DNA from: a virus
IMG/VR virus record: IMGVR_UViG_3300028388_002675
Span: 1-50,285 of that record
Reading direction: 5' to 3' (one strand)
Length of the DNA stretch: 50,285 bases
Shown piece after piece: positions 9,600 through 37,200 of this stretch (positions within the stretch are counted from its first letter, which is position 1; each line of letters starts with the position of its first letter). Both the position numbers and the translations under genes were made by a program. Below the pieces are notes generated by a model. That model saw only the letters and a list, made by a program, of their open reading frames with translations. It did not search any database and was not told where the DNA came from.

Positions 9600-9936
9600 C
9601 AAGTTTTCGCTATCGCTCAAACTTTTTTGTTTTAACTGAACGAAGTGAAGTTTTAATTTCATGTAGATTGTTTCAGTCAGACGGAACCTGTTACGGTCCC
9701 ATCTAATCTCAAAAATAGCTTCATGTGAGTTCGCCACCAGCCGAGACTTGGAAGTGCTACCTCTCGCTTCGTTCCTATTGCTAAAGAGTTTTTGTGTGTA
9801 ATTTGCAGTTTTTCGACAGCCAACAATCAGTCTACATCAATCAAACATCCTACTACCGGATGCTGCTCAATGTGTTACGTGTGCTCCTATACGGTAGCTT
9901 TTTCCACAGCGGTATTTTCAAACTGGCCCGCCAACC
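9600..9936 (-). ncRNA. Gene-free, hairpin-rich stretch; candidate structured RNA
   Basis: No convincing gene lies between 9566 and 9936. An open frame without a start codon runs through part of it. The stretch looks richer in GC than its neighbours and holds several inverted repeats. On the minus strand these are a 9-bp stem GATGGGACC/GGTTCCGTC with a six-base loop (9680-9703), CATCC/GGATG (9846-9862), CCAAC/GTTGG over the end of the GIY-YIG gene (9931-9947), and a long-range ACTTCGTT/AACGAAGT pair (9588-9646). Transcription would come from the minus strand. I do not recognise the family; it could be a structured RNA, a decayed gene or a terminator complex. Confidence 0.35.
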
Positions 9937-10327
9937 TTATGTGTTGGATTGTTTTGCCTTGATGCTATGTTCTAGCAATGCCTGTTTGAGTTTGTCTGAT
10001 CCGCCTACTCTAACATTAATGATACCGTTGTAGTATTCATCTGTTTCAAGTACTCTGCGATCAAACTGTTCTCTTGCCTCTATGTAGCTCATCTCTGCGC
10101 GAGACTTGCATAGGTATAGTATTTCTCTTGTGAAGTTTTCTGGGCCTAGTGCAGTGACGTCAGCGTTGATTCTTTTTGCCTTTGAGAGGTGGTTTGGTAG
10201 TTTTAAATTTGGCTAATTTTTTGCCTATATACTTTTGCCCAGTAGTGAGATTAGTGATAAGATAAACAAAGCCTTCATACTCTTCTGGTATTGTGTCAAT
10301 TGCCTTTCCATCATAAGTCCACTGCAT
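9937..10327 (-). pseudogene. GIY-YIG domain protein, frame-broken
   Basis: The first segment starts at ATG 10327 and reads GFVYLITNLTTGQKYIGKK, the GIY-YIG nuclease signature (VY...YIG), then stops at 10160. The second segment, in another frame, reads NADVTALGPENFTREILYLC, then SYIEAREQFDR and DEYYNGIINVRVGG, stopping at 9937. These are the two halves of a small GIY-YIG protein found in T4-like marine phages. The piece that normally carries a W-x-x-YYGS-like linker is missing, and the frame changes at about 10160-10172. The catalytic core is therefore probably inactive if the sequence is correct. Such proteins act as homing or repair-type endonucleases; the neighbouring gp46 also carries a homing system. 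Confidence 0.75.
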
Positions 10328-10350: not shown

Positions 10351-10548
10351 TTAATTGTCGTCTGTTTTGGTTTGATGCTTTTCGTGTATTTCTTCCATGC
10401 GAGACTTTGCAAGTTCTCTAATTTTCCTTAACCAGCGCCTTGCTTCTCTGTGTGTACGCACACTATTACGAGCCTCAAATTTTTCGTTTGCCTTAAAATA
10501 AGCCATATATGCCTTTGTTAATTGATCATGTGTATCGTCGTCTATCAT
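10351..10548 (-). CDS. Conserved small charged protein downstream of gp46
   Basis: A 65-aa, highly charged, mostly helical protein (LTKAYMAYFKANEKFEARNS, then RRWLRKIRELAKSRMEEIHE). No cysteine cluster, membrane segment or known catalytic motif is seen. Its ATG overlaps the stop of gp46 (TAATG), so it is translationally coupled to the recombination nuclease operon. Small proteins of this type are common after gp46 in marine T4-like phages. Function unknown. Confidence 0.7.
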   Translation of the reverse strand: MIDDDTHDQLTKAYMAYFKANEKFEARNSVRTHREARRWLRKIRELAKSRMEEIHEKHQTKTDDN

Positions 10549-12438
10549 TACTCTACAATGTCTATGTCATTTGCGTATGACGTAAAGCCATTCTCCTTTA
10601 TAACTTTCATTACATGATTAACTCTGCCTACTAATTCGTCTTTGTGCGAAATTAGGAACACATTTTTATCACGTTCTCTGCCCATTTTCTTAAGAACACT
10701 TAATGAATTCTCAACACCTGCTGTATCCATGCCACTATCAATTAGCTCGTCAATAAACAACAGATTGATATTTTGATACAAACTCTCCCAAACATCACGG
10801 AATGCAAAGCTCATACCTAGTATAAGTCTATTACGCTCACCTCTTGACAAGTTATCAAAGTCTAGATCCTGACCTAGCTGTGTAATTTCAACGTTTAGAT
10901 CATTTTGAAACACAACTTGATGCGGTAAACCTAAACGATCAAGATAATATGTAAGTCTGTTGTTTAGATATGCAAGATTTTGATCAATAATTTTCTTACG
11001 GATAAAACTATCCTTATTTGTAAGAAGTTTAAGCAAGAATTCTTGATGTTCTTTAAAACTTGTAAGATCATTTACAGGCATCCAATCAATGTCTTGTAAT
11101 GCTGTGTTTGTTAGATCATCAATTTGTTCTTGATACGGATCTGCTTCTGTTTGCTTTGTTTCTAATGCTTGTTTTAAACTGTCAACGTTCTGTCTATGCT
11201 CGTAAGCTTCCTTGGCAGTTTCGTAAAACGTGTTAGGACGTCCGTTGATATTGCCAATTTCTTCCAGTCCTGCAAGCACATCTTTTAATTTTCCGCTAAC
11301 TTCGGTTTGATATGCTATTGCATCGTTTAATTCTTTAGTTTTTCTAGACAAAATTTCTTCTTTTTTGTCTGCGTGAAGCTCTTGTCCGCAAGTATAACAT
11401 GTAGCATCGTCGAGATTTGCGATGTCTTTTTCTGCTTTTTCAACACTTTTATCAGCACGTAATAGTGCAGAGTCTAGTGTACTTTTTTCTTTATTAAGAG
11501 CCAAAATAGCATTGTTCATTTCTGTCCAATTTGCTAATTTTTCGTGTGATTCTAACTCGGCATCTAATACTTTCTTTAATTTTTTCATTAGCTGTTTGAA
11601 TAGCATTTATCTTTGCTGTTTCTTCTGTAATAGCTTCTTTAGTCACACGAACTTGCTCTTTAAGTGCTTCGGCCTTTTCAGTAAGAATAGTAATACCTAG
11701 CAATTGTTCAATAATTGCACGTTGATCATTTGCCCGCATACTTAAGAACGGTTCGGTGTAGGTATTAAGTGCAACAATATGCTTAAACATATCGTGACTC
11801 ATGTTCAGTAAGTCATTAATAAATTCTTGTGTTTTGCGACTATCACCTTGCGATTCGTCGATCATTTCTTGTTCTTGATCGTTGATATAAAACTTGAGAA
11901 TGTTAGGCGAACGTCCTCTTTCAATGCGATAATCCTGTCCATCCTTTTCAAAATGCAAAGTGACTAACATGCCTTTGCTATTTGTCTTATTAATAAGATT
12001 ATTGCGTTTGATGTTAGTTAGTGCTGTACCATAGAGTGCGTAAGACAGAGCATTGATTATTGTAGTATTGTGAGAAAGAATTCCGTTAGTATAAAATCTA
12101 TGATCAGGATGATCTACAGTGAGATCAAACATGTTTTCTTCTATATCTGTTTTTGAGACTTTTGTAACTAAATCAGATCCGTTTTCTGTTATTATTTCTG
12201 TTTGGTTTTCGACAAGGTCTTTCGTAAAAATCTCGTTAAAATTTTTGTCAAACAAAATATGAGTATCTGCACAGTCTAACGACAATCCAGAAGCAGTTTT
12301 GATTTTCCATAGAGTGTATGGCACAGTTTTGTGGATAGAAGAAACAGGCTGCCAGCCACTATCTGTCTCTATTTCTAAATTAGACAGGTGAACGCTGTTA
12401 ATAAATTTTCTTTCTATTGTGTTAGAAATTGTATGCAT
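10548..12438 (-). CDS. 46: gp46 recombination endonuclease ATPase, C-terminal part with Int-C; one frameshift
   Basis: The ORF starts at ATG 12438 with a 124-residue intein C-part, ending NGILSHN at 12067, then the gp46 extein TTIINALSYALYGTALTNI. An AGGAAG lies ten bases before the ATG. The rest is an SbcC/Rad50-like ATPase: a coiled coil, a zinc hook CYTC, the ABC signature LSRGERNRL and Walker B LLFIDELIDSG. gp46 works with gp47 in end resection, recombination and host DNA degradation. The reading frame changes in an A6 run (11580-11585, minus strand). Removing one A joins ETAKINAIQTANEK to LKKVLDAELESHEKL in one frame, so a homopolymer error or a real indel is likely. Two parts: 12438 to ~11580, and ~11600 to 10548. 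Confidence 0.9.
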
Positions 12439-13599
12439 TTAGTTAAAACTTCCTCTTTGTTTTCTTTAAAGTCACTTTCCCAGATAATTAAAACTTCGTA
12501 GCTTTGATCTTGTGCAAATTGTATTTTGTCTTGGTCGGCTTTCCACTTATCGGATGCTTTTAGTTTAGTTCTTGGATTAACGAAGTTGGACGAATATTTT
12601 TTTGGATTAGCATGCCAAAAGTCGCCGTGATATTCAATTATTTTATTGCCAGCAGATATATCATAAATGTATTGTTTTTTGTTAGAGTCAGAAAGTGTAA
12701 GCTGATGAATAACTTCTAATTTTGGATTAGATTTTTTAACTTCTGATAAAATTTCTTTTTCGGCTTTAGAAACAGTTATTCCTTTTGTTAATTTTAACCT
12801 GTTAATTCTTGCTATTTCTTCTGCCGGTTTAGATTTTAATATCTCTTGCCATTTGTCCTGTCGTTCTTGCCAAACTTTTAATCCTTTTTCTTCTCCGTAT
12901 TTTTCTATACAAATTTCTTTAGAAAAATGTTTTTGTGACTCAGAGACTAATTTTTTAGCTTCTTCCTCAGAATAACCTCTTGCAGTAAAATATTCAGATC
13001 TCCTTTTAGATGTTATATTTCTAACATTAGACGATGCTGATTTCTTTGCACCTTTTTTGTTATTGGAGTTTTTTGTTTCTTCTGCTAATTCGATAGAGTC
13101 GCTTTCGCTGTAACCCTTTTTAATCCAGTATTCCTTTTTAATAGGGCGTCGACTATTCCTTTCAAAATCTGCTTCTTCTACAGTGTAATATGTGTTTGTG
13201 GCAGGATTGATTCTCTCAATCCAAAAATCTCTGCTATAAACACTTTTACAGTTTTTTTGTTTGTTTTCTTTCGACTTTATATAAGCTTCTTCCTCGCTCC
13301 AGCCGCGTAAAATCCAGTATTGTTTTGTATGGCGAGCGTGTTTAGAAAACAAATCTAACTTATCTCTAATATATTTTTCAATATCTTTTTTACTAGTAAT
13401 ATTTGCAGATAGCACGTCATTGAGAATTGTTTCTCTAATATCAGGTTTTAGGTTTTTAATAACATTGTCCATAATGTAAATGCAATTATCCTTTGGACTG
13501 TTGTTCCATCGCGGCATTGTATAACTCTCCTACTGTTGTTTCGTAAATTTCACCTGTTACAGTATCCCTTACTTTTACTACAGTATTTATACAAACACA
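12067..13599 (-). mobile_element. Split intein with free-standing homing endonuclease in gp46 Walker A
   Basis: Int-N begins with Cys at 13599 (CVCINTVVKVRDTVTGEIYE) and ends after 37 residues at the TAA 13488-13486. Int-C (124 residues, 12438-12067) contains a block-B-like DCADTHILF, a block-F-like LTVDHPDHRFYTNGI and the C-terminal HN. The extein reads NGTGK before and TTIINA after, so the insertion sits inside the P-loop and the +1 residue is Thr. Between the halves lies a separate Vsr-like endonuclease ORF. All three ORFs have their own starts and stops. The P-loop is rebuilt only if the halves splice in trans. The arrangement matches the fractured genes described from ocean metagenomes. 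Confidence 0.88.
12414..13517 (-). CDS. Homing endonuclease, Vsr-like (free-standing, between intein halves)
   Basis: A 367-aa protein. Three DNA-binding-like repeats lie near residues 67-88 (YWILRGWSEEEAYIKSKEN), 130-150 (YWIKKGYSESDSIELAEE) and 176-197 (YFTARGYSEEEAKKLVSES). A CIEKYGEEKGLKVWQERQ block follows (203-220). The C-terminal nuclease region has YDIS (285), IIEYHGDFWHANP (293-305), a W-x(2)-D-x(2)-K helix and YEVLIIWESDF (341-351). This is the order of very-short-patch-repair-like (EDxHD) homing nucleases. I chose ATG 13517 because an AGGAG lies nine bases before it, inside the Int-N coding sequence. The gene overlaps Int-N by 32 bases and Int-C by 25, in a different frame from both. 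Confidence 0.88.
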   Translation of the reverse strand: MPRWNNSPKDNCIYIMDNVIKNLKPDIRETILNDVLSANITSKKDIEKYIRDKLDLFSKHARHTKQYWILRGWSEEEAYIKSKENKQKNCKSVYSRDFWIERINPATNTYYTVEEADFERNSRRPIKKEYWIKKGYSESDSIELAEETKNSNNKKGAKKSASSNVRNITSKRRSEYFTARGYSEEEAKKLVSESQKHFSKEICIEKYGEEKGLKVWQERQDKWQEILKSKPAEEIARINRLKLTKGITVSKAEKEILSEVKKSNPKLEVIHQLTLSDSNKKQYIYDISAGNKIIEYHGDFWHANPKKYSSNFVNPRTKLKASDKWKADQDKIQFAQDQSYEVLIIWESDFKENKEEVLTKCIQFLTQ

Positions 13600-13755
13600 C
13601 TTGCCTGTTCCATTACGCGAGCCACTATCGTCGCCGCCTTGATCTAGATTTTCTCCTAGCACAAGTGTTAATTGTTCTCTGTTAAAGTCAACAGCTTGGG
13701 TTTGATTGCCCACGCTCATAAAATTCTTGACTGTAAGATCCTTAATTTTTATCAT
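13486..13755 (-). CDS. 46: gp46 N-terminal part fused to Int-N (split intein)
   Basis: An 89-aa ORF. Residues 1-52 are the N-terminus of gp46 (IKIKDLTVKNFMSVGNQTQA, then LVLGEN, then GSRNGTGK), i.e. the start of the ABC ATPase up to the Walker A lysine. Residues 53-89 are the intein N-part, beginning with the nucleophile Cys and carrying a block-A-like CINTVVKVRDTVTGE. It ends at TAA 13486. The ATG overlaps the stop of gp47 (ATGA). Without trans-splicing to the product starting at 12438, no complete P-loop can form. A 37-residue Int-N is shorter than the ~90-110 residues of common split inteins. Confidence 0.9.
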   Translation of the reverse strand: MIKIKDLTVKNFMSVGNQTQAVDFNREQLTLVLGENLDQGGDDSGSRNGTGKCVCINTVVKVRDTVTGEIYETTVGELYNAAMEQQSKG

Positions 13756-14762
13756 AGCTCGTTATAAATGTCCAAAAGTGTTTTCTTGTCGTAACTATCG
13801 GTGTCAAGTGCAGAAATTTCTCCAGCAACAATTTGATCTACACTTTCAAATTGTTGAATATCAAGTTCAGTTGAAATTTCTTCCATTTGTTTTTGTGGAA
13901 TAAGACTTATCTCTCTACAATTGTATTGTCTAATAAATGTCTCTTTGATAAATTGTGCTTCTTCGTATGAGATAGGCTTGTCAATAGTGACACGTAGATA
14001 CATTTTAGGTTTTATAATACTTTCGATATTATCCAGTAAATTGCTTAATGTCACGGTTCTGTATTTAGGACAATTTGGCCAGTTAATATATTCGGGCTCT
14101 TTATTATTTTCACGGTCGAGTATCATCATACCTCGCTCGTCATCGCCTGCATCTGCGTAATTATGTGGAAATGCATTACCGATATAGTGAATTTTGCCTT
14201 GTTTTTGTCGCTTGTGAAAGTGTCCACTAAACACATAGTCTTGATTTTTGAAATGCTCTGCTTTTAAATCACCATGATCTGGCATCTGTACCATAGCATT
14301 CATGTAAAAGCTCGGAAGTTCAAAATGTCCAAACATATATTTGGCTTTGATTTTTTCGATCTTTTTCCATTCATCACCTACTAACCACGGAACGAGACAC
14401 ACATTGTCGTCTTCATAGATCTCGTCTACAAATGTAATGCCCGGAATATATCTAGCAAATGCTGTTGAGTTTACATCACGTTTGTCTTTGTAATATAGGT
14501 CATGATTGCCATCGAAGAAGTAAAACTTTTCAAAACCAGCTCCTAGCTTTTCCATGCTACGGATAGTTGCATCCATAGTTGTAAGGTTAAGACTGTTTCG
14601 ATTATGATGCCAATCACCGCAGAAAATACCTGTTTCACAACCGTTGGCTTTTGCAGTTTCGATAAACCAATCTACAAACTCTTCGCAATCGTCGTTGTGT
14701 ACTTTGCTATTGCCTTTTAGTCCAAAATGGATGTCTGTAAACACCGCTGCTTTTTTAAACAA
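13752..14762 (-). CDS. 47: Recombination endonuclease subunit gp47 (Mre11/SbcD-like)
   Basis: A calcineurin-like metallophosphoesterase of about 336 residues. The metal-binding motifs appear in order: FTDIHFG (D-x-H), GDWHHN, FFDGNHD and GHFH. It is the nuclease partner of gp46. I prefer the TTG start at 14762 (FKKAAVFTDIHFG) because AGAGGAA lies six bases before it; upstream residues in the longer frame overlap the promoter and look unlike the family. A sigma70-type promoter lies just upstream at 14790-14818. The gene overlaps gp46 by four bases, giving a gp47-gp46 operon. Confidence 0.93.
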   Translation of the reverse strand: MFKKAAVFTDIHFGLKGNSKVHNDDCEEFVDWFIETAKANGCETGIFCGDWHHNRNSLNLTTMDATIRSMEKLGAGFEKFYFFDGNHDLYYKDKRDVNSTAFARYIPGITFVDEIYEDDNVCLVPWLVGDEWKKIEKIKAKYMFGHFELPSFYMNAMVQMPDHGDLKAEHFKNQDYVFSGHFHKRQKQGKIHYIGNAFPHNYADAGDDERGMMILDRENNKEPEYINWPNCPKYRTVTLSNLLDNIESIIKPKMYLRVTIDKPISYEEAQFIKETFIRQYNCREISLIPQKQMEEISTELDIQQFESVDQIVAGEISALDTDSYDKKTLLDIYNEL

Positions 14763-14789
14763 ATTTAAATTCCTCTTATATGCTGTTGT

Positions 14790-14818
14790 ATAATAACAGT
14801 TTTTTTGACACCTGTCAA
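14790..14818 (-). promoter_or_regulatory. Sigma70-type promoter for gp47-gp46
   Basis: The minus strand reads TTGACA (14818-14813), a 17-base spacer, then TATTAT (14795-14790), one mismatch from consensus. The -35 box is one arm of the inverted repeat TTGACA-CC-TGTCAA (plus strand 14805-14818), which could be a regulator site. It overlaps the 3' end of gp55. Confidence 0.7.
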
Positions 14819-15533
14819 CTATTTTTTTCCCTAGATTCGTTTTCGCGTTTTTGTGCTGCTTCCCATTCACCTGCATGTTGTCTAGTATAACTAGGATTTA
14901 ATCCGTTTTGTTCGAGTATGTCGTCTCTAATGTTTTGATTACGTTTTTCAATATTAATAACTCTTACAAATGAGTTTGTCACAGCAGCAGTATAATATGC
15001 AAATGGGTTTTGTGATTTTGATTCATCGAACTGTAGTCCGATTTGTGCTAGTTGTAAAATAGCTTGTCCTCGCATTTCATCATTGTATGTGTAACCACGA
15101 ACGTTGCCTCGAGTAGCGTAACGATCGCATAGTTTCATCCACATAAGAGCAAGCTTGTCAGTTGCCTTTCCGTGATCTTTTGAAAAATAGCCGTTATCCA
15201 TGCCACCTATCCAATGACTTTTCCCTACACAAATTAATTCATCATCGTCGTTAAATTTATAATGTTGGAAAGGAGGAAAGTTAAGTTTAATTTTAGTGTC
15301 TGCTACAGTTTTAGGATTTTTCTTACGACCCGGTTCTTCAGGAATATGATCAAATGTCATAATTCGAAAAATAAGTTCGTTTTTCTCCATTTTTCTATAG
15401 TCTATTTCGCAGTCTGCTTGTTTTACTTTTTCTCCTGCTAATTTCCTATGTTCAAAATCTTCGTTCTGTAATCTTTTTGCTTTATTATTTCCTTTAATAT
15501 GTCTTTATTATTTAAATAATTCGTTTTCCTCAT
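14815..15533 (-). CDS. 55: Late transcription sigma factor gp55, frame-broken near N-terminus
   Basis: gp55 is the sigma-like factor that directs host RNA polymerase to TATAAATA late promoters. The N-terminus starts at ATG 15533 with GGAG five bases upstream and reads MRKTNYLNNKDILKEI, matching T4 NYVNNKELLQAI. That frame stops at 15438. The rest is in another frame from about 15480: AKRLQNEDFEHRKLAGEK, IFRIMTFDHIPEEPGRKK, CVGKSHWIGGMDNGYF, then the sigma-2-like GYTYNDEMRGQAILQLAQI and SQNPFAYYTAAVTNSFVRVI. Residues between the two parts, present in relatives, are missing and the frame changes at ~15480-15500. ATG 15390 would give a 191-aa product without the N-terminal domain. Confidence 0.88.
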
Positions 15534-15611: not shown

Positions 15612-16438
15612 ATGGCAGGATATGACGCAATACTTAGAGGTGCAAGAGCAGGAGCAAGAGCAGCAAGCTCAACAACATCACAGATTAGAAATTCTGTTAA
15701 TCCACAACAGTCTGTACAAAACTTCCTTGGATCTTCTGCGCAATGGGGAGAAAGAATCGGCGATGCAGTTACAGACGTAGGAAAGCAAGTTGTAGGTGAA
15801 ATTGCCAACGCAACAGGATTTGGACGTCTATTACGTGCCGCAAATTTACCCTTGTTTGGCATGCCACGAGGAGCAAATTTTGCTGAAGGCGCTTGGTCTA
15901 GTCAAGATCCAGGCGATTGGCGTGTTAGATTAAGTATTCCTCCAAATTTTAATTTACCAGGTCCTCTAGGAACAAAATTAGCAGCAACTAATGGAATGAC
16001 ATTTCCTTATACACCACAGATTATTTTATCACATTCAGCCCAATATGGACAATTAAGACCTACTCATAGTAATTATCCTTTTCCTGTTTACCAGAGCAGT
16101 GCTGTGGATAATATTACTATTGTAGGTGATTTTTTAATTGAGAACACAGACGAAGCACAATATTGGATAGCAGCAATTCATTATTTAAGAGCTGTAACAA
16201 AGATGGCATACGGAGAAACAAGCAATCAAGGTTCGCCGCCACCAGTTGTTCGTTTGAATGGCTACGGAGATTTTGTGCTTAAAAATGTTCCAGTAGTAGT
16301 TACGCAATTTAACGTAGACATGCCAACTGATGTTGATTACTTGTGCCTACATACAGTAGAAGAGCTGTCCAGTCATTTAGTCTTGATAGATTCATAGCAG
16401 GTGGATATGCAAATAGCAACGGAGTAGGATTTATTTAA
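15612..16438 (+). CDS. 48: Baseplate tail tube cap protein gp48 (gp48/gp54 class), C-terminus frame-broken
   Basis: I chose ATG 15612 (MAGYDAILRGARAG) because AAGGAG lies at 15597-15602; the in-frame ATG 15591 precedes that site. The N-terminus is Ala/Arg/Ser-rich. The body has DPGDWRVRLSIPPNF, MTFPYTPQIILSHSAQYG, HYLRAVTKMAYGE and NVPVVVTQFNVDMPTDVDYL, typical of marine T4-like gp48. After DYLC at ~16346 the frame runs into a stop at 16395. In another frame the true C-terminus follows: YSRRAVQSFSLDRFIAGGYA up to TAA 16438. A stretch normally lying between these parts is missing, with GTGCC-like microhomology at the joint (16341-16354). gp48 caps the baseplate and starts tube polymerisation. 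Confidence 0.8.
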
Positions 16439-24700: not shown

Positions 24701-25216
24701 GTAATTTATCATCCAGTTAAGTATAAAATACTATTTGGCGATAAGGCAACTACTGATTTGCAAGCAAAGTTTAAAATTGTAAAAAATTCAGATATTGTAT
24801 TAAATGATAATGATGTTAAAAGTCGTGTAATTGCAGCGATAAATCAGTTTTTTGCACTGGAAAACTGGGAGTTTGGAGAAACATTTTACTTCTCCGAATT
24901 AAGCACCTATGTTATGCAACAGCTAGCACCAGATATTGTTACTTTTGTAGTTGTACCAAATCAAAGCACCCAAAGTTTTGGTAGTTTGTTTGAAGTGAAA
25001 TCAGAATCAGACGAAATTTTTATAAGCGGCGCAACCGTTGACGATATTGATATTATTGATGCTATTACAGCATCTAGATTAAGAGCAACCGGTGCAGTAG
25101 TTACAGCTACAAATTCTGCTAATGTAGGAATCCAGAGTAGCGGATTAAGTGCAAGTTCAAGAAGTAGTTCAAGCAGCAGTCTAAGCAGCGGCGGCGGCGG
25201 AGGATATAGTTACTAA
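21722..25216 (+). CDS. 6: Baseplate wedge protein gp6
   Basis: A 1164-aa protein with the gp6 N-terminal block DFDNLRRTMINYLRQNYPED and SSEYLALIDLIAFLGQNFAF, then FLELAERRESVLRLARLLSY, which are hallmarks of T4-like gp6. The C-terminus carries the J-like wedge region (VKYKILFGDKATTDLQAKF, then FYFSELSTYVMQQLAPDIVT) and ends in a Ser/Gly-rich tail. T4 gp6 has 660 aa; the extra ~450 residues lie in the middle (about 550-900) and look like inserted beta-rich material. gp6 dimers form the inner ring of the baseplate and bind gp25, gp53 and gp7. The stop overlaps the next ATG (TAATG). Confidence 0.93.
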   Translation: MSSTDRQNRLLIAEDWKRIYQSYRNADFKSYDFDNLRRTMINYLRQNYPEDFNDYIESSEYLALIDLIAFLGQNFAFRNDLNARENFLELAERRESVLRLARLLSYNPKRNQSANGLLKIESVQTSEEIRDSNNVNLANQTILWNDPANTNWYEQFIKIMNAALPVNNAFGRPIKSDNVNGVPTQQYRFNSTNADTPVYGFSKTIDGVSARFEIVSTDVFDGNIIEEPPFPGNNFAFLYRDDGRGFASSNSGFFCHFRQGTLDQGTFNVQSPSNNQVVAIDAVNVNNTDVWLYKLDSFGAEEELWTRVDAVEGNNVIYNSLSKSIRNIYSILTRANDRISLIFSDGTFGNLPQGQFRVYYRTSKNQRLVIDPADMRGLSIRIPYLSKTGKQESLNIVFSLRYIVDNASASETNTSIKANAPATYYTQNRMVTAEDYQIGPLTVSQEIVKAKSVNRLASGISRYFDLKDVTGKYSETNLFAKDGVVYKEFLNPKQTFSFVTRTDVEGAIVNVIEPILGDRKLKNFYLNSFPKTLVGDLNVIWNNLTSDTNQSTGYFTNASGLRAELGQFTASTLKLIKPGSLIKFEAPEGFHFMADNEHGLMEGAANHPNAVTYKWTKVVSVIENGTTTQEDGTGPVLFNDIIPSGAKLVQIVPRLATALQSQVKTQIIDQTFAYRTFALRFDTNIGEWRVITNNNLNVIDNFSIGKAGDKTNQQLDASWLLLFETDGDKYTITYRASRYVFESDNEVRFYYDSSDKIYNSSTGEIIKDRISVLEINTQPDTTQSFTVNYDWEVVEEYRDAEGYVNSKKIQVSFFDSDDDGVVDDPDIFDVIVDEATNTTSKYIFLQKNTTSDGVEDFNYVLQSELEVIVLSSKNNIGALSQYQDSQIFYYIDQDIFEVLNKSAGTLSITQEYKARAGRDGLKFQYIHAADASTRIDPSVSNIIDTYLLTRTYDTQFRQYLEGTTAALPLPPSSDELFLNYGANINKIKSISDEVIYHPVKYKILFGDKATTDLQAKFKIVKNSDIVLNDNDVKSRVIAAINQFFALENWEFGETFYFSELSTYVMQQLAPDIVTFVVVPNQSTQSFGSLFEVKSESDEIFISGATVDDIDIIDAITASRLRATGAVVTATNSANVGIQSSGLSASSRSSSSSSLSSGGGGGYSY

Positions 25217-28200
25217 TGGCATACGAAAACGATCAAAATGAGCCAGCTCTTCCAGTAGGCGGAGATAGCAAAAGGAAAAGTGCTAATCATTTACCGCGAT
25301 ATTATAGAACTCAAACCAATCGGAAATTTTTATCTAGCACCGTAGACCAATTAATTCAACCAGGTGTAGTAGAAAAAATAAATGGTTATATTGGAAGAGA
25401 GACTGCAAAGGCATTTACGTCGACTGATAATTATGTTGGTGATGTAAGTGCAGCAAGGCAAAACTATCAATTTGAACCAGCTACAGTTATCAAAGATGAT
25501 TTGAATAATGTAACTTTTTACAAAGACTACAACGATTATGTAAATCAACTTGATAGTTTTAATAAAGGCATACAAGATCATAGTATTTTCAATAGCGAGG
25601 AATACTATGCTTGGAATCCACATATAGATTGGGATAAATTTTCAAACTTTAGAGAATATTATTGGCTTCCAAATGGTCCGCAAAGTATTCCTGTGGCTGG
25701 CAATACAGTTGATGTTGAAAGTAACATAAAAGTCACTATTGGCGACAACGTTGATAATAACTCTTACATGTTTTCCAATGCTGGTACTGTGAATAATCCT
25801 ACAATAACTCTATACAGAGGACAAACATATAATTTTGAAATTAGTACACCTAACCTGCCATTTACAATTAAAACACAAAGGACCCTAGAAGACGACTTTG
25901 CTTTAGACTCTAGTAGTATTTTCGTAGTACAAGGTGTAAGTATTCAAAATCTAGAAAACGGCATAACAACAGTACGCCTAGGCGAAGATGTCCCAGATAT
26001 ACTCTATTATGTGGCAGCAAATGACATTAATGCTGCAGGAACAATTATTGTAAAAGACATAGAAGAAGCAACATTTATTGATATTGAAAGCGAAATTTTA
26101 GGAAAGCGTTATTATAAAACAGCCGACGGGATAGATCTTTCAAACGGGATGAAAATTTATTTCACTGGAGATGTTGAACCTTCTACATATGCAGAAGGTG
26201 CATACTATGTAGAAGGAGTAGGTGATAGCATAACGCTTGTGCCAGAAACAAAATTAAATACTCCAACAGCATTTACAGCCGATGTAATTTTAAAATTCGA
26301 CGACGAAGAAGCTGGCTTTGATAGACTACCGTATGGCACAGCAGTTGGCTATCCAGAAGCTAAAGATTATTTTGTAATAAACAGGGCTTCAGTAGACGGT
26401 AATATTTGGTCTAGATATAATAGATGGTTTCATAGAAGCGTGATTGAAACATCGGCAGCAGCAAACAATCAGCCAGTGTCCGTGGATCAAAATTCGAGAG
26501 CAAAACGTCCTATTATTGAATTCGAAGCTGGGCTAAAACTGGCAGAGTTTGGAACATTTGCAAAATTAGATGTAGACCTAGTTGATGACTATACAGCAGA
26601 TGTATTTTCTATCATCGAAGGAAGTCAAGGATATAATATCGACGGAGTAGATATTATTGAAGGTATGAGAATACTTTTTACAGCAGACACTGACATACGT
26701 GTTGCAGGAAGAATATTTGAAGTAGAATTTTTAAATTTTGCAGGCGGCGCCAGTACTAATCGACAAATACATTTACAAGAAGTTTCGGACACAGAACCAT
26801 TAGAAAATGAAGTTGTTTTAGTCCGACAAGGAAGTGATTATGCCGGTAGACTTTTCTACTACGATGGTAATAAATGGAAACTTACGCAAAATAAAACAAG
26901 TGTGAATCAACCTCCTTTATTTGATATATTCGATGAAGACAGTGTATCTTACACTGATACGACAGTATATCCTGCTAACAATTTCGAAGGTACCAAAATC
27001 TTTAGTTATAAGGAAGGATCAGGCGCTGAAGATAGTGAATTAGGTATACGTGTATCCTATAGAAATATAGAAAACGTAGGTGATATTATTTTTGACTTTA
27101 ATCTACTGCAAGATAGTATGACGTATACATTAGAAAATAATATTATAACCAAGAATACTAATATTGGCTTTGTAAGAAAATATGCCGATAGGACAACTTT
27201 TGAAACAGCAAACGGATGGATTACCGCCGAAGTTGATAGCGAACAGCCAGTTATACGACAATATGTATTTGATAATTCTACTGTTGGTTTTGAAATTAAT
27301 GTGTATGATAATTCGGCAGAGCTTGATGATTTATGGATTAGAGTATATCTCAATAATGTTTTGAAATTTGAAAATATAGACTATACATTGAGCACTAACA
27401 TACAAGGTAACATAGTTGTAAACTTTAACAGCGACCTAACAGTAGGAGATATAATCCTAATAAAAACAAAAAGCTCTACACTAAAAAATGAAAATGGGTT
27501 TTATGAGATACCGATTAATTTAGAAAGAAATCCGCTAAATGAAGATCTAGTTGACTTTACTCTAGGAGAAGTAAATGATCATGTGAGCACAATAGTTGAG
27601 TCAACAGATGAATTTGCAGGAACATATCCTGGTACAAGCAATTTGAGAGATCTAGGTCCATTATCAAAGTATGGTAAAAGATTTGTACAACATAGTGCTC
27701 CTATTAATTTAAGTTTGTATCATCTTTTGACTAAAGACAGTAATGTTGTAAAAGCAATTGATTATGCAAGGAAAGAATACTCCAAATTTAAAAGACTATT
27801 CATTACAACAGCAAATGAACTTGGATATGACGGGCCTGTAAAAGATCATGTAGATAAGATATTACAAGAAATAAATAGATCTAAAACAAAAGCTATGCCG
27901 TTTTTCTTTTCGGATATGGTGCCGCTTGGCGCTACAAGGAAAAACTCGTATACGGTTGAGGATGTTGATTTTACATTCTTCGGATTGAGCGAAACTTTTG
28001 TACTTACGGAACAAACCCGCAAGGCTGTGCAAGTTTACCAAAATGGCTTACAATTAACTTACGGCAAAGATTATACTTTCAATGCAGACGGATTCTGTGT
28101 TATTACAGCAACAAAGGAACTGGATGATTTAATTGAAATATATGAATATGAAACTACAAACGGATCTTTCGTACCACCTACACCTACAAAACTAGGATTG

Positions 28201-31200
28201 TATCCTAAATACGAACCTGTATTATACACAGACAATACATATCAAACTTTTTATGACAACGAAGGAACACCGCTAGACGGATCAGGACCTCGTGCAGTCA
28301 TTCAAGGGCACGATGGCAGTATAACGATTGCATATAATGATTTTAGAGATAACTTAATTTTAGAGTTAGAAAAACGAATCTATAACAATATCAAAGTGGA
28401 ATATAATACAGACCTTTTTGATATACATGATTTCGTAGGCGGCGAATTTAGGAATACTAATTTAGATAGGAATCACCTAGATAACCCTATGCTGGGAGAT
28501 TTTGTTGATTGGAGTAATTTTGTAGAAACTGATTATACACTGCATGACTTTTTTGAGCGTACTAATAGATTTACCTTCAATTACAAAAATCTACAATCTC
28601 CCAGCGATAAAACACTGCCTGGATTTTGGAGACAGATATACAAGGAAGCTTATGATACCGATCGTCCACATACCCATCCGTGGGAGCTTTTAAGTTATAC
28701 AATCAAACCGACTTGGTGGGAAGAAGTCTATGGACCTGCTCCGTATACTAGAGATAATTTAATTCTATGGCAAGATCTTGAAGGAGGTATTGTTAGAGAA
28801 CCGAATAAAAAATTAGTGACACTAGAAAAATACAAGCGACCAGGATTAACTAGCCACATTCCGGTAGATGAATCTGGAAATCTTCTTTCTCCTGTTGATA
28901 GCGGGTATATTAGAAATTATACAACTCAAAATATAGATGATAGTTTTGTGTTTGGAGACGGTGCACCTGTTGAAAGTGCTTGGCGTAAAAGTTCGGAATA
29001 TCCTTTTAGTTTAATAAAGTCTATAGTCATTAATAAACCTAGCAAGGCTTTTGCCACTGCATTTGATAGGATTAGACAAGTTAGGAATTTAGCAGGACAA
29101 TTAGTCTACAGTACCACTAGTCAACGACTACAACTTGCTAACATTGTGTTTCCTAACACTGCCGAAGAAGAAATACAGGTCTATACTTCTGGACTAGTGA
29201 ATTATATCAATAACTACATGACTGCGGATGTATTAAGAGCTTACGAATTGTATAAAACTAATGTTGCTTCTATTAGAAATCAAATAGGTTTTAAAATTGC
29301 AGGCTTTACAGACAAAGACAAATTTAGATTGATACTTGACAGTAGAACACCTACAAATGAAGGAAATGTCTTTATTCCTGATGAAAACTATCAAATATTT
29401 CTAAACACTAGTAGTCCTGTTGAGACTATAAGCTATAGTGGTGTAATTATAGAACGTAGGGATGACGGATATGTTATTAAAGGATACGATAGACAAAATA
29501 CAGTTTTCAAATATCATAGGGCAGTCAGTTCGCAAAATGATCCTAGTATTAACATAGGCGGAATAAGTGAACCATTTCTTTTTTGGGAATCTGGCAAACA
29601 ATATGTTCCAGGAACAAACGTAGAATTTGAAGGCTCATATTATAGAGTAAAAAATGCACATACTAGTGCCAACGACTTTGCTGTTGAAAATTTTTCCAAA
29701 CTCCCATTCCTTCCGTTAATTGGTGGTAGAGATGCATTTATTAGAAAACAATTTATAGATACATTTGAAGAAGAATTAAAATATGGTACAATTCTTCCTA
29801 CAATACAAGATGTGGTTGATTTTTTATTAGGATACGGCGATTGGTTAGAATCAAAAGGGTTTGTATTTGATTATTTTGACGGAGACTCGGGCAATGTTAT
29901 TAACTGGAGACACAGTGTAAACGAATTCCTATTTTGGACTACACAAAATTGGGCAGCAGGCAGTGTAATTACTTTAAGTCCTGCTGCTACAAGATTAAAA
30001 TTTAATTCTAATTACAGTACAGTTGATAATATTTTCGATAACTTTTACGGACACACTCTTTTAAAATCGGATGGTAATAAACTAGTAGAAGAATTTAGCA
30101 GCCTTGGTCGTGAACCAAACGAATTTATAATACAGCCTAGAAACACCGAAGATGGAATTTTTGCAGTTAGACTTCCGCTAGTGCAAAAAGAACATGTTTG
30201 TCTAATAGACAATAGAACTGTGTTCGGTGATATAATTTATGATATACAACCTGGTTATCGGCAGGAACGAATAAAAGTTCTAGGGTATCGTACAGATAGT
30301 TGGGACGGAAGTCTAAACATTCCAGGATTCATATATGATAATCTTGTAATAGAAGAATGGGAAGCATGGAAAGACTACACAATTGGCGATGTTGTCAAAT
30401 ACAAAGAATTTTACTATACTGCGAATAATAAAATTCCAGGCGAAGCAACATTTACATCTAGTAATTGGAATAGGTTAACTGGAAAGCCAGAGCCGGGATT
30501 GTATGCAAACTTTGAATACAAAACAAATCAGTTTGCAGATTTTTATGACCTTGATAGTGATAACTTTGATACTGAACAACAACGACTAGCGCAACATCTG
30601 ATCGGATATCAAAAACGTCAATATCTAGAAAATATTGTAAATGACAGTGTTAGTCAATATAAATTTTATCAAGGGTTTATACAAGATAAGGGAACACAAA
30701 ACGCACTTACAAAACTGTTTGATGCATTAAGTTCAGACAACAAAGACAGTTTAGAATTCTATGAAGAATGGGCAATTAAAGACGGACAATATGGTGCATC
30801 TGAAGGTTTTGAAGAAATTGAATACAAACTAGACGAATCAAAATTCAGATTAACTCCGCAGCCTATAGAATTAGTAAATTCTGTCACAGGTAACGAAACT
30901 GATTTGATTTATAGAATACTGCCTTTCGAAACGTATGTAAAAAATAATACCTACAATCATAGTGCTGCATTTCCAAGAAAAAATATTCTAGATACATATA
31001 TAAAAAATGCAGGATATGTCAATCAAGAAGATGTACAAGGTATTACAACTACATACCAAGATATAACAAATTTCTTCTATACACAAATTGCAAAGGATAG
31101 CTATATTTGGGTAGGTAATCAAAACCGAACATGGAATGTTTATAAACATGTTGCTACACCGTACACAATTGAAAGTATACAATCAGGCGATAACGAATTT

Positions 31201-34200
31201 TCTATAATTGTAGATGCTACACCTACAGATATTTTTGCTGGTGATGTGATCGGAATAGGCGATTTGTACAAATATAATGCTGTAGGTTCTGAAGATAGTA
31301 GTCAAACTACTAGCTATGAGAAATATGATCTAGAAGGATTTTTTGTAGTATCTTCTATTACAAATAATAATATAGTTTTGAAGTCAGACCAAACAATTGA
31401 AACGATTGAAAGCGTAAGAGGCTCATTAACAAAGTTTTTAGCTGTACGTGCAGGAGATGCAATCGAAGCAAATACCATTTTACAAAAAGGTGTCACAATT
31501 AACGATCTGATCTGGATTGATAATAATGGTTCGCAATCTTGGAATGTATTAAAAAATAATCAATCTTATTCAAAACTTCAAGAATTATCCAACAGTGCAA
31601 CAGGTTCTGATCATAATTATGGATTTAGTTTATCAGCAGATGATAGAAATACAACTTTACTTGTGGGTGCGCCTGATTATGAAAACGGTAGGGTTTTTGT
31701 TTATTCAAGGCCTGCAAATAGTGTTAATTTTGTGCAAACACAAATTATAGAACCGTTTGGGTTTGGCGACGATAGAGAAAGATTTGGAGCAAGTGTTGCT
31801 GTAACTCCTGACGGGGAATATGCAATAATTGGATCTCCGAGTGCATCAAATGTTAAAACAAAATATGCAGGAGCATTTGTTGAAACTACGGATTACGGAA
31901 AAGGATCCATAGTGTTAAAAGATCAAAGTCTATGGCAGTCGTTGGTTGATATAGAAGGGCAAGAAGATAATATTGTATTTGCAAGTTTCGGCAGTACTAC
32001 ACAAGCAATAGAAACTCTATCTCTAGAACTAGATTCTACAAATCAAAGTCCTGTGCTTTTAGCAGGAAATTATGCAGTAAATAGATTAACCGGCGACTAC
32101 GCCTTTCCAGGACTTTCGGTAAATCATGTGCTTGTAAGGGTACCTCTTGATATATATGACGGTTCTGGAGAAGATGATGAAGTAAAACTAGGATGGAATA
32201 AAAGAACATACTCTAATCAAAGTCAATCTGTTTTAGCGGATAGAGAACCTTTTAATGGCGATTATCCGTTAATAACAGGAGAATATCTCGAGTCAGATAA
32301 GACTATCAAACACAAAGTAGATGTAATACTATATATTGAATCAGCTACAAACGTGCCAGAAATAAATGATATTTTACAAACTAGAACAGGTAGCGGAACA
32401 GTAGCTTATGTTTTCAATGAAGCTGCCGAAACCGTAATCTATATAAAAAATGCAAATGGTACTTTTAACAACGAAGATAGTTTGTTTAGAAACGATGGAG
32501 ACTTCATAGGAAATTATGAAAAACAAGCCCCTGTAGACAATATAGATGCAGCAGATGTATGGGGCGGTTATTGGTTCATACAAACAGGGTCTTACACTCC
32601 TACACTACAAACAAATGTTGCAGATGAAGGTAAAGCACTAGTATTTTATGATGTTATAAGCGATAGTACTTCTACAGGTAGATTCTATTACAATAGTTTA
32701 GATTTTGTAGCAGGAGTTACAAACAGTCAAAACACCATAGGAAGCTACATAGAAGTTTTAAGCTTTACAGGGTCACCAGGACCTGGCGCAGTTACAGGAG
32801 ACTTTCTATCAGATAAATTTGTAGTAAGGGCACCAAAACAAGTAACCGATGCATACAGTGCAGGTCAAGAAATAGATTTATATGTCAACCAGCTGCCTAG
32901 ATATGGTACAGGTATAATTAAAGACCTTGCAGAAATTAATTTAACATCAGCAATAACAAACAAAAAGCATACTATAAGTGATATATGGGATGGATATATC
33001 AACTTTAATTTGACAAAATTTGATGCAGGAGGCAATCCGTTTGAGCCGAAAGTTGGTCTTATTGTAAGAGACAGGACACGAGAAGGTGAAGCAGAAGTTG
33101 CATATGTGCAAAAAAATGGTCTTAATGTTAATATCTTTGTAAAAAATGTCACAGGTGTCTGGTCAGTAGGTGACGATTTTGGACAAAACGCTGAAATAGA
33201 ATTTGTAGGTGTTCCTTCGGATCCCGATGTAATATATCAAGTTGATCGTATTATGGGGCAGATTCAATTTACAGGTTTAGGTTATGATCCTGCTAATATA
33301 GGCGGTTTGTTAGTACTAGAAGCACCCAATGATATTGCGGTTCCGAATGTTCCTGTACTTACAGATGTAGAGTGTTGGTTTTATAATGAAAGTAATATTT
33401 TAGGTATTCCCAGACCTGCAAACGCACCAAGTCCAGTTAATAATGAATGGACACAAGTCTTCAAGATATCTGCTGATTCTACAGGAACACCAAGCGGGCT
33501 AACAAATGAAGGAATGTATTCACTGTATCAAAGATCTGTGCCTGGCAATTACGCTCTTGTTGGATCATATACCGTACCAGAAAAGCAAGCAAACTTCTTT
33601 TTAGGTAGTCAAATAAAAATTACAAAATTTGATGATCTTTATAGAGCATTTATTCATGCCAAAGGTGAACAGACCGAATTTTCACCTGGTAGGATTTATT
33701 TGCTGAAAAATGGATTAGAAAACAGCTATTCGTATGACTGGGAATATGCAAAAAATAAAAAGTTTAAAGGTGCATTCAACGAGAGTTTAAATTATTATAC
33801 TGGAGATATTGTATATCTTTCAGACCCTGATGGAACTCTGTATACAGCAAAAACGAATATTGCTGCAGGCACATTTGATATTAGAGATTGGACGTCAACT
33901 AATGATATAGTAGATTATGTGGGTTATATCCCTAATAACACCGGATTAAGTGTTGTTACTGACAGTACAGTATTGCCTATAGTTTTAAATCAAAGTAATA
34001 TGTATGATTTTGGATCGGACTATGACATAAGCAAAAACGGCGATGTATTAGTTGTCTCTGCCTTGTACAACAATGATGAAGCTAATAGAGTCGTTGTATA
34101 CAGATCAAATAATGGATTTTTTGAAAGACGTCAAGAAATATTAGCTCCTACTAATACTAGTGGTTTTGCACAAAGTATTTCAATTAGTGATGACGGCATG

Positions 34201-37200
34201 CTTATTGCAATAGGCGAACCATATGACAATGACGTAAGATTAGATCAAGGTGTTGTTTATATTTACAAACAGACCAACGGGGAATTTTCTCTGCATCAAA
34301 CCTTGAACAGTCCAAATAACGAACGTGCAGAATTATTTGGATGGAATCTAGAATTTGACGGCGGGTCTCTTGCAATTACAGCAAGGAATGCAGATAGTTA
34401 TGTGTCTACCACATTAGACAATAATGAAACTACATTTGACCAAAGTTTTACTACATTCAAAACAATAAACGATGACAGCGGAGTAGTTTATTTGTACGAA
34501 AATTATAATAATAATATGATTTTTGGACAGATAATTCAGTCTGCAGATGCAAATATAAATTACTTTGGCAGAAATCTTTTAGTAAAAAATAATCATGTGT
34601 ATGTAGGCCTACCTGCATTAACAAAAAATAGTTTACAAGGAAGAGTGTTAGATTATAGTAAACCTGAAAATACAAAAATTTGGTCTATACACAGATCCGA
34701 AAAAGAAAGTGTAGATATTTCAAAAATTAAAAAAGTATTTTTGTATAACACTGTACAGAAAGAACTAATTACATATCTTGATTATATAGATCCTTTACAA
34801 GGAAAAGTATCTGGTGAAGCAGAACAAGATATAAGATTTAAAACATATTATGATCCTGCCACATATACAAATACAGACAATGCGAGCAGCCGCAGAATTG
34901 TTGTTGACATTACCAACGGATGGGGCAAAGAACATGTTGGCGAAGTGTGGTGGGATTTGAGCACAGCAAAGTTTTACAATCCCTATCAAGATAGTGTAAT
35001 TTATAGTACACAAAACTGGAATCAAGTTTTTATTGGTAATAGTATAGATGTTTACGAATGGGTCGAAAGTGACGTAATACCTAGTGTATGGGACCAACGT
35101 GCCGACACAAATACCTATTTTCCAAGAGGTTATAGCGGAACAAGTATCTACGGCGATAGTGTCTATTCAACTAAATCTATATACGATAGTGTAGCACAAA
35201 CCTTTAAGAGAAAGTATTATTTCTGGGTAAAAGATAAAAAGATAGTACCTAATGTAGAATTTAGAAACATTAAATTAACTGATATAAAAAGTTACATTGA
35301 AGATCCACGAGCGGCTGGCTTAAGATTTATGGCATTTATAAGTCCTACACAGTTTGTTTTGTTTAATTGTGAAGATTTAATAAAAGATCAAGATGTTGCA
35401 TTAAGTGTGCAATATTGGTCGATAGAAAACCAAACACAAAATATACATAATCAATATCAGATAATTTCAGATGGATTAGAAACAAGTCAGCCTAAAGCAG
35501 ATATTATACGCAAGTGGTATGACAGTTTAGTAGGCTATGATGAACAAAAGCGTACTGTCCCTGATCCTGCTTTGAGTGCAAAATACAAATACGGTATTTT
35601 AAATAATCCGAGACAAGGATGGTTTGTAAATAGGATTGAAGCACTAAAACAGGTAATTGAAAGAACTAATAGAGTACTTTCACAAAATCTTATTATAGAT
35701 GATAAAGACATCAGTGCATTGTTTACTAATGAGGAAGCACCCAGTGTTGCATCTAGACTATATGATACTAGTGTAGATACATTAGCTGATCTAGAATTTA
35801 TAGGTGTTGCCAGGGCAACCAGAGCAAGTCTAACTCCTGTTATTTCTAATGGAAAAATTACAAGAGTAATAATAGATAACCCAGGTAGAGGATATCGTGT
35901 AGCACCTACAGCTACAATAAGTGGAAATGGTGAAGACGCAGAAATTGAACTAGAAATTAATAGTATAGGTCAAATTACAAGTGCAACAGTGTTAAACCAA
36001 GGTAATAATTATGATAGTAGTACGCTTATAACCGTGAGAAGATTCACCGTGTTAGTAGAAACCGATGATACTATACAAGGTAAATGGGCATTGTATGAAA
36101 GAATACAAGAATCTGGTACGTGGAACAGAATTAAAAGTCAGTCCTTTGATACAAGGCTTTTCTGGGATTACAAAGATTGGTATGCCGAGGGATATAATGC
36201 TCTCACTGATATAGATTATTTGATCGATAATTCTTACGAACTAACAAGTCTTGAAAATGTTATTGGTGATGTAGTTAAAATTTCAACAATCGGAAATGGC
36301 GGGTGGCTACTTTTAGAGAAAATTAACAATCAAGATACAGCTGATTATACAATAAATTATAAGACTATCGGCCGAGAAAATGGCACAATAGAGTTTAAAA
36401 ACAATTTATATGACTTTGCTGAATCAAATGTTGGGTTTGACACAATAAGTTTTGATACAAAAATCTATGACAGTGAACCTGTAGATGAATTACGTATAAT
36501 CCTTAATTCTATAAAAGATGATTTACTTATCGATAAATTAAAAATTGAATTTAACCAATTGTTCTTTGCAAGTTTAAGGTATGTGATGAGAGAGCAGCCT
36601 TATGTAGATTGGATGTTTAAAACAAGTTTTATCAAAGCAAAGCACAATGTAGGATCATTAAGAAGAGATATTACATTTAATAATGATAATTTGCCAAGTT
36701 ACGAAGCATATGTAAAGGAAGTTAAACCTTTTGCTACAAAAATACGAGAATATTTAAGTGCATATGAAGGTTTAGATAACACACAGACTCTAGTAACTGA
36801 TTTTGATTTACCTCCAGTATATAAGGATGCATATAAAACCATACTTCCTGAAGCAGTAAAAGTAGTGAACAATACACTTATTGGAATAGATGCAGATATA
36901 GACACATATCCAAATAAGAATTGGCTAGATAATGCCACATATAAGATTACCAGTGTCGATGTAGTAGAACCGGGCGCAGGTTACACTAGTCCTCCACAGC
37001 TAACGGTAGAAGGCGGCGGCGGAACTGGCGCAGTTCTACAGGCGTATTTAGGAAGAAATGGCAGAATAACTGATGTAAAGGTAATCAATCAAGGTAGTGG
37101 ATATTACAGTACTCCTATAGTAACAATTAATGGAAATTTATTAGATACAGGAACACCTGCAAAGTTTTCGGTGAATATAGGGGATAGTCCTGTAAGAAAT

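What the first reader, a model, noticed from the sequence alone, without database searches (positions are those of the whole stretch)
12067..13599. gp46 is a fractured gene: split intein plus free-standing Vsr-like homing endonuclease in the Walker A loop
The sequence shows three consecutive ORFs: gp46-N with a Cys-starting intein N-part, a 367-aa Vsr-like nuclease, and an intein C-part (ending HN) with the rest of gp46. The extein joins NGTGK to TTIINA, restoring the P-loop only after trans-splicing. Such fractured genes with split inteins and this endonuclease family are known from ocean metagenomes for gp41, NrdA/NrdJ and IMPDH genes. I do not know of a described gp46 case. A recombination nuclease controlled by protein splicing would be notable, since homing itself depends on recombination.
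Basis: partly seen in the sequence, partly recalled or inferred. Interest (0 to 1): 0.93.

Follow-up and report, generated by a model that had tools for sequence, protein, structure and literature searches.

The report
Split-intein-fractured phage recombination gene gp46
A giant phage carries its DNA-recombination gene gp46 in two pieces, cut inside the ATP-binding loop by a mobile protein-splicing element plus its own DNA-cutting enzyme; the two protein halves probably rejoin themselves after translation, a known trick found here in a gene not previously reported to have it.

Summary
On the minus strand, gp46 is interrupted after ...NGTGK (Walker A lysine) by three ORFs: a 37-aa Cys1 intein N-part, a 367-aa nuclease, and a 124-aa intein C-part ending LSHN before TTIINA. 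This is not an isolated assembly accident. 26 other distinct gp46 inserts from viral contigs show the same split, and close relatives lack the insert at exactly this bond. One empty relative is 99% identical in protein to the window's gp46. The intein C-part matches atypically split inteins (VidaL best), and the nuclease domain models as Vsr/I-Bth0305I. The same intein family sits at the same GK^T/S bond of the terminase large subunit, sometimes in cis. Silent-site divergence is much lower in the insert than in the flanking gp46, which points to lateral spread by homing. Splicing and cleavage are inferred, not shown. Verdict: a real, well-supported new member (new host gene) of the known fractured-gene/split-intein kind. 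The idea that splicing controls recombination is untested.

The parts
13752..14876 (-). gp47 / SbcD-like nuclease subunit, directly upstream of gp46
   Evidence: PHROG 100 E 8e-72
13600..13755 (-). gp46 N-extein, 52 aa, ends at the Walker A lysine (..GSRNGTGK)
   Evidence: PHROG 77 SbcC-like E 1.5e-7; 100% identical to the intein-free L022/L023
13486..13599 (-). IntN, 37 aa from Cys1 (CVCINTVVKV...), with stop codon; also encodes the ribosome-binding sequence of the nuclease ORF
   Evidence: alignment A3 with Cys1 invariant in 14 of 14
13525..13531 (-). Shine-Dalgarno-like AGGAGAG for the nuclease ORF, inside the IntN codons for VGEL
   Evidence: sequence; GGAGA/GGGGA kept across most relatives, including a HEN-less copy (L163) where it now precedes the IntC start
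12414..13517 (-). free-standing putative homing endonuclease ORF, 367 aa
   Evidence: dN/dS 0.15 against L002
12417..12782 (-). Vsr-like nuclease domain, residues 246-367 (D286, E295, G298, W301, H302 invariant in 15 homologues)
   Evidence: AlphaFold model; VIA-align Z 11.3 to Vsr 1cw0, 10.5 to I-Bth0305I 3r3p
12449..12456 (-). Shine-Dalgarno-like AGAGGAAG before the IntC start codon
   Evidence: sequence; retained in HEN-deleted L004 and L144
12067..12438 (-). IntC, 124 aa, own ATG, ends FYTNGILSHN (overlaps the nuclease ORF by 25 bp)
   Evidence: IntC profile vs VidaL E 6.3e-8; HINT-fold model
11494..12066 (-). gp46 C-extein, starts TTIINA; reading frame true to relatives down to ~11565, then frameshifted tail
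   Evidence: PHROG 77 E 3e-38; 98.8% identical to L022/L023
11564..11569 (.). junction of a 98-bp out-of-frame deletion relative to all relatives compared (second break of gp46)
10548..11606 (-). orphaned rest of gp46 (zinc hook, ABC signature, Walker B), 352 aa
   Evidence: PHROG 77 E 1.5e-46, Rad50_zn_hook E 5e-4

Best explanation
The gp46 (SbcC/Rad50-like) gene of a jumbo myovirus has been invaded between the lysine and threonine of Walker A by a mobile element made of an atypically split class 1 intein and a Vsr-like homing endonuclease. Three polypeptides are made from overlapping ORFs: gp46-N fused to IntN, the nuclease, and IntC fused to gp46-C. IntN and IntC associate to form a HINT domain. 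Cys1 attacks the K-C bond, Thr+1 attacks the thioester, Asn cyclises, and the exteins are joined as NGTGK-TTIINA, restoring Walker A. The nuclease cuts empty gp46 alleles in co-infecting phages, and repair copies the whole 1.5-kb element in. Shown by sequence comparison: anatomy, exact insertion point, conserved split, conserved splice residues, fold assignments, purifying selection, and lateral movement of the insert relative to its host gene. Inferred: trans-splicing, DNA cleavage and homing.
For: Exact empty sites in relatives, including L022/L023 with identical N-extein and 98.8% identical C-extein, and in the isolate PA5oct (NGTGKTAKLNALSYALFG). Same three-ORF layout in 22 distinct gp46 inserts, and split but HEN-less in 5 more. 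HEN/IntC overlap is exactly 25 bp in most copies. Cys1, penultimate His and terminal Asn are invariant in the 14 aligned. IntC profile and model match split inteins. Vsr-like nuclease domain. Window vs L002 silent divergence: IntN 0.21, IntC 0.42, HEN 0.46, against exteins 0.89 and 0.85; dN/dS 0.15 for HEN and 0.055 for IntC. In the extein tree the window nests within empty alleles with starred support, and presence/absence needs 7 changes. Homologous cis mini-intein, 36% identical over 158 residues, at the same bond in TerL of phage Magnus.
Against: No biochemistry: splicing and cleavage are untested. The usual block B Thr is replaced (CADTH; Ala at His-3). The window's own gp46-C is frameshifted by a 98-bp deletion, so the spliced product as assembled lacks the second half of the ATPase. 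The nuclease domain assignment rests on a model of overall pTM 0.40 (the domain itself is at high pLDDT); its sequence-profile match to solved structures was nil, and Foldseek E-values for it were weak (0.16 or worse).
Confidence: 0.9

Rival explanations
1. Ordinary cis intein with an internal endonuclease, split only by sequencing errors or joined in vivo by two programmed frameshifts.
For: ORFs overlap (32 and 25 bp); cis forms of the same family with in-frame nuclease do exist in TerL (L155, L160, L168, L171). The window contig has other unique deletions.
Against: The same two breaks recur in 27 distinct gp46 inserts of independent contigs. Nuclease and IntC have their own starts with SD-like sequences. 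In the five HEN-less gp46 copies the stop after IntN and the separate IntC start are kept, although nothing else would prevent fusion.
Confidence: 0.05
2. A dead remnant: gp46 is a pseudogene in this phage and neither splicing nor homing still works.
For: 98-bp frameshifting deletion in gp46-C and a 59-bp one in the nearby SegE-like gene.
Against: Extein dN/dS against L022 is about 0.01; against L002 IntC is 0.055 and HEN 0.15; relatives have intact 660-667 aa C ORFs. The window lacks 50-230 bp at about nine places relative to its nearest relative, which looks like a contig-wide defect rather than decay of gp46.
Confidence: 0.08
3. Free-standing endonuclease insertion that split gp46 into two subunits that work together without splicing (as with mobE in nrdA of phage Aeh1).
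For: Such split genes encode working enzymes without splicing (PMC2988022).
Against: Both breakpoints carry conserved intein halves with Cys1 and SHN/T junctions, HINT fold, and a cis mini-intein homologue; the break is inside the phosphate-binding loop, where an unspliced two-chain enzyme is unlikely to bind ATP.
Confidence: 0.03

Closest known systems
Fractured genes with split inteins and Vsr-like endonuclease (Dassa et al. 2009, NAR 37:2560; gp41, NrdA/NrdJ, IMPDH)
   Same: Gene broken into N-extein-IntN, free-standing Vsr-like nuclease ORF, IntC-C-extein
   Different: Host gene is gp46; split is near the N end (37/124 aa). The paper itself was not held, so the comparison rests on memory and on citing papers
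Atypically split inteins VidaL, AceL-TerL, GOS-TerL (37/115 aa), Cat-TerL
   Same: Short IntN, long IntC; IntC profile best hit VidaL; IntN length equal to GOS-TerL (PMC11766414)
   Different: AceL/GOS-TerL have Cys+1, so another insertion bond; here Cys1/Thr+1 at Walker A K^T
P-loop inteins of TerL (TerL1-a type) and Ackermannviridae TerL mini-inteins
   Same: Same GK^T bond (PMC5050341 calls it the classic P-loop insertion); homologous intein 36% identical in phage Magnus TerL
   Different: The two isolate examples read here (Magnus, Kuja) are cis and HEN-less; here split with nuclease, in gp46
I-Bth0305I and Vsr/EDxHD nucleases
   Same: Predicted catalytic-domain fold, Z 10.5-11.3
   Different: I-Bth0305I is intron-encoded (own knowledge); here the N-terminal 245 aa are a distinct, repeat-containing putative DNA-binding region

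Membership tests
Class 1 intein | Nucleophile at position 1 | tested here: met
   Cys1 invariant in 14 aligned gp46 copies
Class 1 intein | C-terminal His-Asn followed by Cys/Ser/Thr | tested here: met
   LSHN then T; SHN invariant in 14; TIGR01443 above cut-off
Class 1 intein | HINT fold | tested here: met
   IntC model: 38 matches at E <= 0.001, top VidaL E 2e-7
Class 1 intein | Block B Thr-x-x-His | tested here: inconclusive
   His invariant (H60), Thr replaced by Ala (A-D-x-H) in all 14; effect on splicing unknown
Class 1 intein | Splices | not testable with these tools
   needs expression
Fractured gene (split intein with free-standing endonuclease) | IntN and IntC in separate ORFs, nuclease ORF between | tested here: met
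   window and 21 other distinct gp46 inserts
Fractured gene (split intein with free-standing endonuclease) | Insert absent from relatives at the exact splice bond | tested here: met
   30 distinct empty alleles
Vsr-like (EDxHD) homing endonuclease | Vsr-type nuclease fold | tested here: met
   Z 11.3 to 1cw0, 10.5 to 3r3p over residues 246-367
Vsr-like (EDxHD) homing endonuclease | Conserved catalytic D/E/H set | tested here: met
   D286, E295, H302 invariant in 15; roles not tested
Vsr-like (EDxHD) homing endonuclease | Cuts the empty site and drives homing | not testable with these tools
   only indirect: lateral transfer signal
gp46 / SbcC-like ATPase | Walker A, zinc hook, signature, Walker B | tested here: met
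   phrog_77 over N, C and D ORFs; Rad50_zn_hook weak; in this contig spread over three ORFs
AceL/GOS-TerL allele | Same insertion bond (Cys+1) | tested here: not met
   +1 residue is Thr at Walker A; AceL/GOS have Cys+1 (PMC11766414)

The most novel reading that the evidence does not exclude
One split-intein/Vsr-nuclease lineage is specialised on the Walker A lysine-threonine bond as such. It has crossed between two unrelated P-loop ATPases (gp46 and terminase), alternated between cis, split+nuclease and split-only states, and in gp46 makes the phage's recombination machinery, on which homing may itself depend, wait for trans-splicing.
Probability: 0.3. Interest if true: 0.68.

Novelty: new member of a known kind. 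Interest (0 to 1): 0.52.

Why it matters
gp46/gp47 process DNA ends for phage recombination and possibly take part in homing (PMC2988022). An element that breaks gp46 in its ATP-binding loop therefore couples its own mobility and its host's recombination to protein trans-splicing. The natural series found here (empty, split+nuclease, split without nuclease, cis mini-intein, and an unrelated LAGLIDADG-like cis intein at the same bond) makes it testable how and why inteins become split and stay split. The 37-aa Cys1/Thr+1 IntN pieces are also candidate protein-ligation tools.

Tried and rejected
A homopolymer indel as cause of the second break was my first guess; the alignment showed a 98-bp deletion instead. 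The Cr30 phage homologue of the nuclease was checked as a gp46 case: it stands beside terL. Partial matches of query residues 78-311 in 121Q-like phages were checked as possible inteins in one case: the Sharanji gp46 is continuous. Monophyly of gp46 inteins: the best tree needs 4 host changes, but the AU test does not reject a single gp46 group (p 0.29), so host jumping is suggested, not shown; four long-branch rows were left out and two host labels corrected after the first tree. Sequence-profile search of solved structures with the nuclease found nothing; only the fold search did. Matches of the nuclease model to mitoribosomal proteins were not pursued. Literature: no paper in the library holds both 'split intein' and 'gp46'; SbcC/Rad50 + intein gave nothing relevant; Dassa 2009 is not held.

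Full report
What was checked. On the minus strand the window holds gp47 (13752-14876), then gp46 in pieces. The first piece is 52 aa of gp46 ending at the Walker A lysine (NGTGK), followed by CVCINTVVKVRDTVTGEIYETTVGELYNAAMEQQSKG and a stop. Next comes a 367-aa ORF in another frame, then an ORF that begins MHTISNTIERKF and runs for 124 aa to FYTNGILSHN before TTIINALSYALYG.

Insertion point. tblastn of the pieces against 80 loci found by the C ORF and 24 found by the nuclease shows two classes: loci with the insert, and loci in which gp46-N residue 52 is followed without a gap by gp46-C residue 1. L022 and L023 are 100% identical to the window in the N-extein and 98.8% in the C-extein, yet empty. 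The isolate PA5oct has a continuous gp46 (NGTGKTAKLNALSYALFG), annotated as seen by mass spectrometry. One locus, L078, carries at the same bond a different intein, Ser1 and LAGLIDADG-like by inspection, in one continuous 951-aa frame.

The split is real and conserved. In 27 distinct gp46 inserts (window included) none is continuous: 22 have the nuclease and 5 do not. The IntN ORF ends in a stop, the nuclease start is in most copies preceded by GGAGA or GGGGA lying inside the IntN codons, and IntC has its own start, overlapping the nuclease end by exactly 25 bp in most copies. L004, L018, L144, L159 and L163 have lost the nuclease but keep the stop and the separate IntC start. In L163 the IntN-borne SD now stands directly before the IntC start. 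This argues against sequencing error and against frameshifting as explanations.

What the intein is. Cys1 and the terminal Ser-His-Asn are invariant in the 14 copies aligned. The IntC profile finds VidaL (E 6e-8), gp41-1 (1e-5), Cat (2e-5), NrdJ-1 and PolB16 among solved structures. The predicted IntC structure finds VidaL first, then other inteins. With 37 + 124 aa it belongs to the atypically split, short-IntN inteins; GOS-TerL is 37/115 (PMC11766414). A cis mini-intein of 159 aa in the terminase of Klebsiella phage Magnus aligns with joined IntN+IntC at 36% identity over 158 residues.

What the nuclease is. Residues 246-367 of the model (mean pLDDT 80; about 90 over most of this domain) align to Vsr (Z 11.3) and I-Bth0305I (Z 10.5), the two top entries. 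D286, E295, G298, W301 and H302 are invariant in 15 homologues. The first 245 residues hold several copies of a YW..RG(W/Y)SEEEA-like motif, probably DNA-binding (inference). dN/dS between window and L002 is 0.15.

Movement. Between window and L002, silent differences are 0.21 (IntN), 0.46 (HEN) and 0.42 (IntC) per site, but 0.89 and 0.85 in the flanking exteins: the element is shared more recently than the gene that carries it. In the extein tree the window sits inside empty alleles with starred support, and presence needs 7 changes (6-8 in bootstraps; at least 3 forced by starred branches). Both fit homing; neither shows cleavage.

Host range of the element. The relatives with clear IntN and IntC sit at Walker A GK^[TS] of gp46 or of terminase. 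More distant relatives were seen in a gp41-type helicase (L092), in a P-loop ATPase of unassigned type (L095) and in UvsX (H188). In terminase, one clade is cis with the nuclease in frame (L155, L160, L168, L171, L178) or without it (L176); the cis/split state changes once on the tree. The best tree needs 4 changes of host gene, but a single gp46 group is not rejected (p 0.29). Among isolates, 318 phage records match IntC. Of the 100 rows shown (40 best, 60 spread, with some overlap), those with a gene named by function are terminase, except one UvsX-like recombinase; none is named gp46. No isolate covers 80% of the IntC-gp46-C query.

In the window, gp46-C lacks 98 bp at about 11,565 that relatives have, which shifts the frame and ends the ORF at 314 aa (660-667 aa in most intein-bearing relatives); the rest is the orphan ORF 10548-11606. 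A SegE-like gene nearby lacks 59 bp. Against its nearest long relative, the window lacks 50-230 bp at about nine places. I read this as a defect of the contig, but a real deletion is not excluded. The biology therefore rests on the relatives as much as on the window.

Setting. The window carries a portal protein, baseplate, tail-fibre and late sigma factor genes; its nearest isolates by gp46 and by a baseplate hub protein are PA5oct-group jumbo myoviruses, at well under 60% identity.

Verdict. Fractured gp46 with a split intein and Vsr-like nuclease: supported, confidence 0.9. It is a new host gene for a known arrangement. That splicing controls recombination, or that the element is a Walker A specialist that jumps between unrelated ATPases, is possible but unproven.

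Noticed in passing
window 944, 9755, 9841-9866, 9946-9963, 10166-10173, 11564-11569, 15474-15486, 16343-16346, 34395-34423: Relative to the nearest long relative (record of L023), the window lacks 50-230 bp at about nine places with little or no sequence in exchange, at least two of them out of frame; suggests contig-wide assembly defects or many small real deletions.
   Followed up: partly
window 9937-10327 (minus strand): SegE-like GIY-YIG gene broken into two ORFs by a 59-bp deletion; intact (about 150 aa) in L078.
   Followed up: partly
L078:466-1533: A different intein (Ser1, LAGLIDADG-like by inspection) in cis at exactly the same gp46 Walker A bond: two unrelated inteins have hit one bond.
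   Followed up: partly
L153 and L160: Terminases that appear to carry two inteins, one at Walker A GK^T/S and one just before a CN/CLYLDEFA-like Walker B stretch.
   Followed up: no
L091 and L096: More distant gp46/SbcC genes with split intein and related nuclease at the same bond (GK^S).
   Followed up: partly
L083:2671-3763: About 1.1 kb of extra sequence between gp47 and gp46, not examined.
   Followed up: no
phage record OR805293.1 7665-8048 (hit H188): A relative of this IntC lies in a UvsX-like recombinase of a PA5oct-group phage.
   Followed up: no
window 25216-40290 (plus strand): A single 5,024-aa ORF between baseplate and tail-fibre genes, not examined.
   Followed up: no
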